From positions 248,001 through 312,000 of the forward strand of contig NZ_JACHHZ010000006.1 in the NCBI RefSeq assembly GCF_014202975.1: a stretch of DNA of 64,000 nt, written 5' to 3'. Position 1 is the stretch's first letter, and the number at the start of each line of letters is the position of its first letter. Below the pieces are notes generated by a model. The model was given only the letters and a program-made list of their open reading frames with translations. It did not search any database and was not told the DNA's origin. A program made the translations under genes and the position numbers. The stretch comes from Povalibacter uvarum (GTDB lineage: Bacteria > Pseudomonadota > Gammaproteobacteria > Steroidobacterales > Steroidobacteraceae). Shown in pieces: positions 58,402 through 60,766 of this stretch.

Positions 58402-58440
58402 GCTGCTGGCGACTGGCTGCTGGCCAGATCGGATGGCCAG
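58402..58440. repeat. Heptad repeats (CTGGCNN units) between CBS and prmC
   Basis: The segment carries CTGGCGA, CTGGCTG and CTGGCCA heptads. The last one pairs in a hairpin: CTGGCCA (58420-58426) with TGGCCAG (58434-58440). It lies in the divergent gap between the CBS gene and prmC. Confidence 0.6.
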
Positions 58441-58495
58441 GGCGGACGCGGATCGCGCGGATCGGATAATCTGTGCGTCGATTGTACGTGACTTG

Positions 58496-59374
58496 ATGCG
58501 CCCAATGCCCGCCGCCGATTCCTCGCAAACCATTTCCGATGCGCTGCATACCGCAACCACGATGCTGTCGCGCACTTCCCCTTCCGCCCGACTCGACGCC
58601 GAGCTGCTGCTCGAGCACGTAACGGGGCTTTCGCGCACGGCTTTTCGCAGCGCACCTGAGCGACAGCTCCCGCCGAAGGCCGGGTGGTCGTACCAACAGC
58701 TCATCAAGCGCCGGCTGCAGGGCGAGCCTGTTGCATACATTCGCGGACAGCAGGAATTCTGGTCGCTGCTGCTCGAAGTCACACCCGCGGTCCTCATTCC
58801 GCGACCGGAGACCGAACTCGTCGTCGAGCGCGCGCTCGCACATTCCGCGAAGGACGCTGCCATCGACGTCGCCGATCTGGGCACTGGGAGCGGCGCCATC
58901 GCAGTCGCGATCGCGCACGAACGACCGGCCGCGCGTCTCGTTGCCGTCGATGCGTCGAAGCCCGCGCTCGAGATTGCAATGCGCAACCTCGCACGACTGC
59001 AGGTCGCCAACGTTACGTTGCTGCACGGAAGCTGGTTCGCGCCGCTCGAAGGTCGTCGCTTCGACCTCGTCGTGTCGAATCCCCCTTACATCGCGAGCGA
59101 AGATCCGGATCTCGCGCCGGACGTCCGCCGCAACGAACCGGGGATGGCATTGATCAGCGGACGCACCGGGCTCGAAGCCATCGAACACATCGTTGGCACG
59201 GCGCCCGATCACCTCGCACCCGGCGGCTGGCTCATCCTCGAACACGGCTGGAAACAAGCGCCCGCGGTCAGCGACTTGCTTGTGCGCGCAGGCTTCAGTC
59301 ACGTAACCTCACACACCGATCTGGCCGGCCACCAACGGGTAACAGAGGGAAGCTGGATGGCGGATAGCGGATAG
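58496..59374 (+). CDS. prmC: Release factor glutamine methyltransferase
   Basis: A 292-residue SAM methyltransferase that methylates the GGQ glutamine of release factors. The signature VVSNPPYIASEDPDL has NPPY at 195-198; SAM site VADLGTGSGAIAVAIA and the N-terminal helical domain (LDAELLLEHVTGLSR) fit PrmC. I chose the ATG at 58496 (MRPM); the next at 58505 is an alternative, and no strong ribosome site exists. The C-terminus SWMADSG and its TAG are encoded by GGATAGC heptads of the following repeat. Confidence 0.94.
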   Translation: MRPMPAADSSQTISDALHTATTMLSRTSPSARLDAELLLEHVTGLSRTAFRSAPERQLPPKAGWSYQQLIKRRLQGEPVAYIRGQQEFWSLLLEVTPAVLIPRPETELVVERALAHSAKDAAIDVADLGTGSGAIAVAIAHERPAARLVAVDASKPALEIAMRNLARLQVANVTLLHGSWFAPLEGRRFDLVVSNPPYIASEDPDLAPDVRRNEPGMALISGRTGLEAIEHIVGTAPDHLAPGGWLILEHGWKQAPAVSDLLVRAGFSHVTSHTDLAGHQRVTEGSWMADSG

Positions 59375-59436
59375 CGGATGGGTGAAGACGCTCCGCTGTT
59401 TCCATTCCGACCCATCCGCTATCCGCTATCCAACTT
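59355..59436. repeat. Heptad inverted repeat element (GGATRGC units), prmC-ppiB
   Basis: The left arm has four heptads (GGATGGC, GGATAGC, GGATAGC, GGATGGG; 59355-59382); the right arm (59411-59436) has three inverted heptads plus AACTT. Its spacer starts TGAAGACGCTCCGCTGTTTC, and 21 spacer bases (59383-59403) recur in inverted orientation at 60009-60029 with one difference. Its right end is 14 bp from the ppiB ATG. Confidence 0.9.
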
Positions 59437-59450
59437 CTTCAGGTACTCCC

Positions 59451-59954
59451 ATGCTCGAATTCAAAACCTCCAAAGGCACCTTCACTGTCCAGCTGTTCGA
59501 CAAGCAGGCGCCGATCAGCGCTGAAAACTTCCGCAAGTACGCCGAGGACGGCTACTTCGACGGCACGGTTTTCCATCGCGTGATTCCGGGGTTCATGGTG
59601 CAGGGCGGTGGAATGACCGCTGACCTCAAGCCCAAGGCCGGTCAGCGGCCGGCGATCAAGAACGAAGCGACCAACGGTCTCAAGAACAAGCGCGGCACGC
59701 TGTCGATGGCGCGCACGAGCGACATCAACAGCGCCACCTCGCAGTTCTTCATCAACGTCGTCGACAACGATTTCCTGGATCACAAGGGTGCCGCGAATTT
59801 CGGCTACGCCGTCTTCGGCCGCGTCGATTCCGGCATGGAAGTGGTCGATGCCATCGTCGGCGTGAAAACCGGCAGCAAGGGCGGCCACCAGGATGTGCCC
59901 GTCGAGCCGATCACGATCGAGTCGGTGACGGTGGTTCCTGACAAGGAGGCTTGA
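59451..59954 (+). CDS. ppiB: Peptidyl-prolyl cis-trans isomerase, cyclophilin type
   Basis: A 167-residue cytoplasmic cyclophilin: FDGTVFHRVIPGFMVQGGG (catalytic Arg), SMARTSDINSATSQFFINV and NFGYAVFGRVDSGMEVVD. There is no signal peptide, so it is PpiB rather than PpiA. The ATG at 59451 is preceded by an AGGT site within the repeat leader. The gene is bracketed by two heptad elements in opposite orientation. Confidence 0.95.
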   Translation: MLEFKTSKGTFTVQLFDKQAPISAENFRKYAEDGYFDGTVFHRVIPGFMVQGGGMTADLKPKAGQRPAIKNEATNGLKNKRGTLSMARTSDINSATSQFFINVVDNDFLDHKGAANFGYAVFGRVDSGMEVVDAIVGVKTGSKGGHQDVPVEPITIESVTVVPDKEA

Positions 59955-59971
59955 GGGCACGAGGAGCCATA

Positions 59972-60071
59972 AGAAGTTGGATGGCGGATAATGGATGGCG
60001 GATAGGCCGGAAACAGCGAAGCGTCTTCACCCATCCGCCATCCGCTATCCGCTATCCGCTATCCAACTTCT
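59972..60071. repeat. Heptad inverted repeat element (GGATRGC units), ppiB-mtgA
   Basis: The left arm (59972-60006) has AGAAGTT then four heptads of type GGATRGC or GGATAAT; the right arm (60030-60071) has five heptads, inverted, ending with the complement AACTTCT. The spacer 60009-60029 is the inverse of the 59383-59403 spacer (20 of 21 bases). It ends 2 bp before the mtgA ATG, with no ribosome site between. Confidence 0.9.
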
Positions 60072-60073
60072 CA

Positions 60074-60766
60074 ATGCGCCGTATATCCCGCATCGCCGGC
60101 TGGCTGCTGCTCAGCTGGATCGTTCTGACGGTGTCGGCGGTGCTCCTGATGCGATGGATCGATCCGCTCACGTCGGCATTCATGGTTCGTGAGCGCATCG
60201 TCGCTTCGACCTCGAAGCCGCAATACGCGGTGAGGCAGCGATGGGTCGACGCGAAGGACATTTCGCCGCAGATGAAGCTGGCGGTGATCGCGTCCGAGGA
60301 CCAGACATTCCCGGACCACTACGGCTTCGACTTCAAATCGATCGACAAAGCACTCGACGAACGCGAGAGCGGCCGGCGTGTGCGGGGCGCGAGCACGATC
60401 TCGCAGCAGGTCGCGAAAAATCTGTTTCTCTGGTCCGGCAAGAGCTGGATCCGCAAAGGACTCGAGGCCTACTTCACGGTGCTGATCGAGACGCTCTGGC
60501 CCAAGGAGCGGATTCTCGAGGTGTACCTGAACATCGCCGAATTCGGTAAAGGCGTGTTCGGCGTGGGTGTCGCGAGCGAGACCTACTTCAAGAAGCCCGC
60601 GGTTCGATTGAACACGTACGATGCGGCACTGCTGGCAGCCGTCCTGCCGAATCCCAAACGATTGCGTGCGAACGCACCGTCGCGCTACGTGCGCTCACGC
60701 CAGGAATGGATCGTCGGTCAGATGCGCGGCCTCGGCGGCACGGCATTGCTGAAGCGGCTGGACTGA
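60074..60766 (+). CDS. mtgA: Monofunctional peptidoglycan transglycosylase
   Basis: A 230-residue GT51 glycosyltransferase with one N-terminal membrane anchor (IAGWLLLSWIVLTVSAVLL). It has the catalytic Glu in LAVIASEDQTFPDHYGFD, GASTISQQVAKNLFLW and YLNIAEFGKGVFGV, standard motifs for lipid II polymerisation without a penicillin-binding domain. The ATG at 60074 follows the inverted repeat immediately, so the leader is the repeat arm. Convergent with the next gene (1 bp between stops). Confidence 0.95.
   Translation: MRRISRIAGWLLLSWIVLTVSAVLLMRWIDPLTSAFMVRERIVASTSKPQYAVRQRWVDAKDISPQMKLAVIASEDQTFPDHYGFDFKSIDKALDERESGRRVRGASTISQQVAKNLFLWSGKSWIRKGLEAYFTVLIETLWPKERILEVYLNIAEFGKGVFGVGVASETYFKKPAVRLNTYDAALLAAVLPNPKRLRANAPSRYVRSRQEWIVGQMRGLGGTALLKRLD

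What the first reader, a model, noticed from the sequence alone, without database searches (positions are those of the whole stretch)
59355..60071. ppiB is bracketed by two opposite-facing copies of the same element
The spacers 59383-59403 and 60009-60029 are reverse complements of each other with one mismatch in 21, and both elements use GGATRGC heptads with an AACTTCT end. Two copies of one element in opposite orientation about 640 bp apart around ppiB could pair and invert the segment, or could have moved as a unit.
Basis: seen in the sequence. Interest (0 to 1): 0.7.

Follow-up and report, generated by a model that had tools for sequence, protein, structure and literature searches.

The report
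Inverted heptad-repeat pair around ppiB
The two repeats around ppiB are real and belong to a large set of short repeats, built from seven-letter units, that sit at the ends of genes in this bacterial lineage; one is an inverted copy of the other, and nothing seen here suggests that ppiB flips.

Summary
Observation confirmed. Two hairpin elements (59349-59437, 59973-60070) flank ppiB and share a 21-nt spacer, inverted, with one mismatch; the spacer pattern occurs only here in the 6.3-Mb genome. The heptad arms are everywhere: GGATRGCGGATRGC matches 153 times, reversed control 0. Elements are convergent pairs of mostly four 7-nt units with a GAAG cap, at the edges of gaps between genes: 162 of 201 arms lie within 40 nt of a predicted gene end. 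The class occurs in Steroidobacter and two more genera of its family, in differing dialects.

Inversion is not supported: ppiB has one orientation relative to prmC in 14 of 14 genomes of the genus. Local copying of a whole element is supported: all four ppiB arms carry a cap variant found in 5 of 98 other sampled arms, and theirs is the only substantial spacer match among 41 two-armed elements apart from inner caps and REP-like repeats. No Y1-transposase link.

Closest known kind: GGGAATC heptads of Xanthomonas and Nostoc. In five Steroidobacter genomes 0 of 209 arms have four GGG tracts, so quadruplexes are not required. Function unproven.

The parts
58433..59374 (+). prmC (release-factor glutamine methyltransferase); its TAG stop (59372-59374) lies inside the left heptad arm of element 1
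   Evidence: ORF; PrmC_N 1.9e-19 and methyltransferase domains; stop read
59349..59382 (+). element 1, left arm: GAAG cap and GGATRGC heptads
59383..59409 (+). element 1, spacer (59383-59403 shared with element 2)
59410..59437 (-). element 1, right arm: inverted heptads ending in CTTC, 13 nt before the ppiB start
   Evidence: RNA fold of 59349-59442: -52.1 kcal/mol, z -7.4
59451..59954 (+). ppiB (cyclophilin-type peptidyl-prolyl isomerase)
   Evidence: Pro_isomerase 6.3e-49
59973..60006 (+). element 2, left arm: GAAG cap and heptads, one irregular unit
60007..60029 (-). element 2, spacer; 60009-60029 is the reverse complement of 59383-59403 with one mismatch
60030..60070 (-). element 2, right arm: inverted heptads ending in CTTC, 3 nt before the mtgA start
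   Evidence: RNA fold of 59972-60072: -64.4 kcal/mol, z -11.7
60074..60766 (+). mtgA (monofunctional transglycosylase)
   Evidence: Transgly 1.9e-50

Best explanation
Both features are members of a class of gene-end heptad brackets: a GAAG cap, about four 7-nt units (general form GNGRNTR; here GCGGATR), an inner GTCAGA-like motif, then ordinary spacer DNA, then the same arm inverted. Most arms stand at the outer edges of the gap between two genes, G-rich strand pointing away from the gene (shown on the sampled arms). The element between ppiB and mtgA and the one between prmC and ppiB are inverted copies of each other (shown by sequence). The prmC-ppiB one is probably the source, since in the relatives examined only that side of ppiB carries arms (inferred). 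The copy was most likely made locally, by replication template switching or gene conversion between the inverted heptad arms about 0.6 kb apart, not by a transposase and not as a flip switch (inferred from one event). If the three genes are co-transcribed, each element would form a long RNA hairpin between cistrons; a plausible effect is to separate the prmC, ppiB and mtgA messages and to leave translation starts without a Shine-Dalgarno site (inferred, weak).
For: The spacer is unique to this pair. All four ppiB arms carry the cap variant GAAGNTGGAT, seen in 5 of the other 98 sampled arms of this genome. Among 41 two-armed elements sampled in this genome, other spacer matches are runs at the inner cap, REP-like repeats, and two chance-level mid-spacer matches of 11-12 nt (E 0.009 and 0.03); the ppiB pair (23 nt, 96%, E 2e-7) is one of only 4 pairs lying in one fetched locus, out of 820 possible pairs. 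Consecutive arms within 330 nt are convergent in 72 cases, divergent in 3, in tandem in 4, over five genomes. Of 201 arms with a predicted gene outward, 162 lie within 40 nt of its end (94 of 101 3' ends, 68 of 100 5' ends); medians over all are 6 and 13.5 nt. The prmC-ppiB gap has both arms in G000, G011 and G012 and one regular arm in G007 and G010; within 300 nt downstream of ppiB arms were found only in G000. PF01797 is absent from G011, which has 110 arm matches, and 0 of 12 PF01797 loci carry arms. Starts behind an arm lack any SD match of 3 nt or more in 22 of 34 cases against 9 of 57 window genes, p 4e-5.
Against: The local mechanism rests on one event; the three other neighbouring pairs share no spacer. 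Complementarity between the two arms of one element barely exceeds that between arms of different elements in G000 (23.2 against 22.1; 55 of 2000 permutations reach it), clearly does in G012 (2 of 2000), and is below it in G011 (1994 of 2000 reach it), so pairing is not clearly maintained. Elements also lie between divergent and convergent genes (5 and 3 of 37), where one message would not hold both arms; co-directional enrichment is not significant (29 of 37 against 36 of 59, p 0.12). The SD deficit follows partly from the arm occupying the SD window. 39 of 201 arms lie further than 40 nt from a predicted gene end. No expression data were available.
Confidence: 0.6

Rival explanations
1. The element is a non-autonomous mobile element (MITE- or REPIN-like) moved by a transposase in trans; the ppiB pair is a recent short-range transposition.
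For: Capped inverted ends, a copied unit at ppiB, many copies, patchy occurrence among species.
Against: Spacers of different elements are unrelated apart from caps and REP-like repeats. In the gap with the four-helix-bundle gene the same content exists with and without recognisable arms in close relatives. No PF01797 link; other transposase families were not searched. No target duplication was noticed by eye; not tested formally.
Confidence: 0.25
2. The arms are binding sites for a DNA- or RNA-binding protein whose specificity drifts between species; selection puts them at gene ends, and the ppiB copy is an accident of gene conversion.
For: Unit length, cap, number of units and gene-end placement persist while the letters change; four junctions are occupied in both G000 and G012 samples against 0.46 expected, P 0.001, assuming 5000 junctions.
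Against: No candidate protein was looked for or found; the functions of the neighbouring genes were not surveyed; arms are not recognisable in close relatives that keep the same gap.
Confidence: 0.25
3. The two elements form an invertible switch around ppiB.
For: Inverted repeats of 49 nt at 94% about 0.6 kb apart.
Against: One orientation in 14 of 14 genomes, one per species; the same arms occur all over the genome. The adjacent genes are prmC, ppiB and mtgA; other genes of the window were not scanned for recombinases.
Confidence: 0.03
4. The arms are DNA or RNA G-quadruplex elements, as proposed for the Xanthomonas and Nostoc heptads.
For: Same unit length, number of units, strand and placement as described in PMC4692102. 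In the GGGG dialects of two other genera (G040, G042) 12 of 16 loci read hold an array of four or more GGGGNTR units.
Against: 0 of 209 sampled arms of five Steroidobacter genomes have four GGG tracts; these arms were picked by GCGGWTV-like patterns. Two-tier quadruplexes from GG tracts were not tested.
Confidence: 0.08

Closest known systems
GGGAATC / GGGGA(C/T)T heptad repeats of Xanthomonas and Nostoc (Rehm et al. 2015, PMC4692102; abstract and sections 10, 13, 14, 16 read)
   Same: 7-nt units, mostly four per array; mostly intergenic; 70 (Xcc) and 75 (Xac) convergent pairs; most often within 50 bp after stop codons on the coding strand or before starts on the non-coding strand; 83% of positions shared between the two Xanthomonas; generally not linked to mobile elements; function unknown.
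   Different: No sampled Steroidobacter arm has four GGG tracts; there is a GAAG outer cap and a GTCAGA-like inner motif (not mentioned in the sections read); several dialects occur in one family and even in one genome; arms bracket whole gaps, one of them with a gene inside; a whole element was copied at ppiB. Divergent gaps are not clearly avoided (5 of 37 elements, 11 of 59 window neighbours).
REPINs (Bertels and Rainey 2011, PMC3116915; abstract and part 1 of section 10 read)
   Same: Many copies, extragenic, two inverted arms with a less conserved spacer, able to form hairpins.
   Different: Arms are tandem heptads instead of REPs; the distance between arms varies from 18 to 175 nt in this genome; no RAYT link.
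TAACTGA heptamer repeats of marine Beggiatoaceae (MacGregor 2015, PMC4679880; abstract and outline read)
   Same: 7-nt direct repeats a few nucleotides before start codons; canonical ribosome binding sites rare there too, by a section heading.
   Different: Other unit; [quoted passage not shown]
GTAG / CGTC tagged REPs and TIRs of tyrosine transposases (Di Nocera et al. 2013, PMC3733652; abstract and section 16 read)
   Same: Short repeats in high copy between genes, often in opposite orientation close together.
   Different: Palindromic units with a tag; the heptad arms flank none of the 12 PF01797 loci fetched.

Membership tests
Heptad repeats of the Xanthomonas/Nostoc kind | tandem 7-nt units, usually four, dispersed | tested here: met
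   Four units in 51 of 102 (G000) and 50 of 70 (G012) arms; in G011 the mode is five, 13 of 22
Heptad repeats of the Xanthomonas/Nostoc kind | placement close to gene ends, G-rich strand leading away from the gene | tested here: met
   162 of 201 arms within 40 nt of a predicted gene end in the outward direction; convergent pairs 72 of 79 consecutive pairs
Heptad repeats of the Xanthomonas/Nostoc kind | GGGNATC-type unit able to give four G3 tracts | tested here: not met
   0 of 209 arms in five Steroidobacter genomes; the GGGG dialects of G040 and G042 could, 12 of 16 loci
REPIN | each arm a REP, palindromic by itself, with a GTAG-type tag | tested here: not met
   Arms are tandem heptads; in the RNA folds of both elements the arms pair with each other
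REPIN | cognate RAYT gene flanked by the same repeats | tested here: not met
   No PF01797 match in G011 despite 110 arm matches; 0 of 12 PF01797 loci carry arms
MITE (features recalled) | copies share an internal sequence | tested here: not met
   Spacers unrelated among 41 two-armed elements except the ppiB pair, inner caps and REP-like repeats
MITE (features recalled) | target-site duplication | tested here: inconclusive
   None noticed by eye; no formal test
Invertible DNA switch | both orientations found among relatives | tested here: not met
   14 of 14 genomes one orientation, one genome per species
Invertible DNA switch | both orientations in one population | not testable with these tools
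   No reads available

The most novel reading that the evidence does not exclude
Steroidobacteraceae carry an unrecognised process that writes or keeps a capped array of about four heptads at gene ends on both sides of a gap, whatever lies in the gap and whichever way the genes point, and that re-writes the letters of the unit from species to species while keeping cap, length, number and orientation.
Probability: 0.2. Interest if true: 0.85.

Novelty: new variant of a known kind. Interest (0 to 1): 0.5.

Why it matters
Heptad repeats at gene ends have been described in Xanthomonas and Nostoc without a function, and four units were linked to the need for four G-tracts. Here much the same anatomy persists without GGG tracts, which separates the anatomy from the quadruplex idea. 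The change of dialect between relatives, and one gap seen with and without arms, give natural experiments on how such arrays arise. The ppiB pair shows one copying step.

Tried and rejected
Inversion switch: rejected on 14 of 14 orientations. RAYT/REPIN mobilisation: tested with PF01797 and an arm search at its 12 loci, not supported. The four-helix-bundle (PF05635) gene as mobile driver, because arms flank it in four species: rejected, since the four copies with arms sit in one conserved gap, the same gap in three species has the gene without recognisable arms, and 16 of 20 PF05635 loci have no arms. Quadruplexes: with the exception. Rfam: two microRNA matches (25.6 and 22.6 bits) far below their gathering scores. 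The class survey used a wrongly built pattern (one base too many before the first unit) and is not used; repeated correctly.

Limits. In one search the reversed-pattern control is high in heptad-rich genomes (G000 70 + 70; G040 44 + 40, more than its 35 + 35 matches; G042 35 + 27), I think because heptad arrays in another phase satisfy it; G040 and G042 were therefore checked on 16 loci, of which 9 have both convergent arms. In one search the control is 5 + 13 for G000 and at most 5 in any other genome. The sample of this genome is incomplete: the 57 regions come from the matches and the listed part (100 of 153), and the GCGGTTR dialect seen is represented by 10 loci, 4 of them with both arms. 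Gene ends come from a simple codon-usage caller written here and trained on the window, not from a standard gene finder. The arm finder is built on GCGGWTV, so other dialects are under-counted.

Full report
What is there. ppiB lies between prmC and mtgA, all on the + strand. Each of the two gaps holds a hairpin element. Element 1 runs from GAAG at 59349 to CTTC at 59437, element 2 from 59973 to 60070. The spacer pattern is found only at these two places in the genome of 6,321,800 bases (see for the BLAST). As RNA the two elements fold at -52.1 and -64.4 kcal/mol, z -7.4 and -11.7 against shuffles. The stop codon of prmC (59372-59374) is a TAG inside a heptad, and the mtgA start lies 3 nt behind the CTTC of element 2.

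A class spread over the genome. The 14-mer GGATRGCGGATRGC occurs 75 times forward and 78 times reverse, reversed control 0 and 0. In 57 regions I found 37 elements with both arms and 28 single arms. The arms have a GAA(G) outer cap and a GTCAGA-like inner motif. Within 330 nt, consecutive arms in the sampled loci of five genomes are convergent in 72 cases, divergent in 3 and tandem in 4. A capped three-unit pattern counts 82 + 66 arms in this genome, controls 0 + 2; the part listed includes a second dialect, GCGGTTR.

Placement. Of 209 sampled arms in five genomes, 201 have a predicted gene of at least 90 aa on their outward side within the fetched stretch, and 162 of these lie within 40 nt of its end: 94 of 101 gene 3' ends and 68 of 100 gene 5' ends. 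Medians over all are 6 and 13.5 nt. In one search, which counts only genes with their stop in the stretch and within 40 nt, 27 of 94 3' ends but 2 of 49 5' ends lie inside the arm; prmC is such a case. In G000 the 37 two-armed elements lie between ++ 20, -- 9, -+ 5 and +- 3 gene pairs; the window has 36 of 59 co-directional neighbours, and the difference is not significant, p 0.12. Starts behind an arm lack an SD match of 3 nt or more in 22 of 34 cases against 9 of 57 window genes; the arm itself occupies much of the SD window, so this is a consequence as much as a clue.

Relatives. A three-unit GCGGWTV pattern matches in 9 of 79 genomes, all in the genus: own 339 (control 18), G012 234, G011 110, G006 22, G007 18, G003 13, G002 3, G008 1, G010 1. 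With the general unit GNGRNTR, G004 (165, control 20; its one locus read has a GTGARTR dialect) and, in other genera of the family, G042 (278, control 62) and G040 (70, control 84) stand out; G013 (38, control 1) and G002 (19, control 0) were not looked into. The control is not clean in heptad-rich genomes, so I read 16 loci of G040 and G042: 9 have both convergent arms, several with arms a few nt from predicted genes. In a class-wide sample, 2 of 273 other genomes have any capped match, 1 and 2 matches; this sample held only one other member of the family, without a match.

The prmC-ppiB gap in 14 genomes. The arm finder gives both arms in G000, G011 and G012 and one arm in G007 and G010, where the other arm looks irregular by eye; none in the other 9. 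Spacers of the three two-armed cases share nothing longer than 7 nt by BLAST. Within 300 nt downstream of ppiB arms are found only in G000; G002 and G012 have the mtgA motif there without arms. In all 14 the prmC C-terminal motif precedes ppiB in the same orientation. G012 has one arm in each of two dialects here. So the prmC-ppiB site is probably the older one, and the ppiB-mtgA element the copy.

How the copy arose. All four arms at ppiB have the cap variant GAAGNTGGAT, which 5 of the other 98 sampled arms of this genome have. The inverted alignment of the two elements scores 118.5 against at most 96.5 for element 1 with 35 other elements in both orientations. Among 41 two-armed elements, other spacer matches are runs at the inner cap, REP-like repeats, and two mid-spacer matches of 11-12 nt at chance level. 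Only 4 of the 820 possible pairs lie in one fetched locus, and the one copied pair is among them. This points to local copying. Template switching between inverted repeats is stated to homogenise arms and invert spacers (PMC8604942, start of the abstract seen in the listing; a yeast paper). It remains an inference from one event.

Arms and gap content are separable. A gap between a UDP-glucose dehydrogenase-like and an epimerase-like gene holds a PF05635 four-helix-bundle gene in seven species with both flanks shared. Arms stand at both edges of this gap in G000, G003, G007 and G011 and are not recognised in G001, G008 and G010, while the content can be aligned across all seven. A small tree puts G001 with G011 (support 0.79) inside a group with G003, so arms were lost in G001 or gained more than once, without replacement of the gap. 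I cannot tell which; the left edge of G010 and the right edges of the species without arms may be decayed heptads (my reading by eye).

Shared positions. Of the sampled junctions of G000 (57 regions) and G012 (40 regions), four are occupied in both: L035/L250, L046/L244, L081/L234 (both flanks by BLASTP) and prmC-ppiB (ppiB by BLASTP, prmC); a fifth shares one flank (L061/L256). About 0.46 are expected by chance with 5000 junctions, P 0.001. With G011, L033/L276 shares both flanks.

Compared with what is known. The closest match is the heptad class of Rehm et al. 2015 (PMC4692102; abstract and sections 10, 13, 14 and 16 read): mostly four units, convergent pairs, the same strand rule at gene ends, most positions shared between two species, function unknown, quadruplexes suggested. 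Here none of 209 arms sampled in five Steroidobacter genomes has four GGG tracts, yet the modal number is four in G000 and G012; in G011 it is five. Against this stands that the GGGG dialects of G040 and G042 do offer four G-tracts in 12 of 16 loci, and that two-tier quadruplexes were not tested. Paper searches for Steroidobacter with repeats and for heptamers showed no description of this lineage's repeats among the titles listed; the lists were capped and the library holds only open-licence papers.

Verdict. Observation confirmed; the flip is not supported; the copying is. The pair is one instance of a lineage-wide variant of a known kind of repeat. My odds: identity of the class about 0.9, local copying about 0.6, any mRNA function about 0.3.

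Noticed in passing
L036 / L289 (G000:C1:525504-526071): A four-helix-bundle (PF05635) gene in a conserved gap is bracketed at both gap edges by heptad arms in four species and by none recognised in three.
   Followed up: yes
L048, L049, L056, L060, L065, L068, L075, L083, L084, L089: Two other REP-like repeats (GTGGGTCCGGCTTTAGCCGGAC type and GTCATTCCCGCGAAAGCGGGAATCC type) lie in or near heptad gaps.
   Followed up: no
L055 (G000:C2:1090479-1090693): A 14-unit left heptad array, the longest in the G000 sample, followed by copies of a 10-nt repeat GGATAGGGGC; possibly a length-variable locus.
   Followed up: no
G012 loci L228-L267: One genome carries several heptad dialects (GCGGTTA, GCGGATR, GGGGATA/GGCGATA); the two arms of an element agree in TT/AT type in 17 of 20 pairs (permutation p 0.008).
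   Followed up: partly
L302 (G004): The genus member nearest in ppiB shows a GTGARTR dialect with its own convergent pair.
   Followed up: partly
window 59372-59374: The prmC stop codon lies in a heptad; 27 of 94 gene 3' ends within 40 nt of an arm lie inside the arm.
   Followed up: yes
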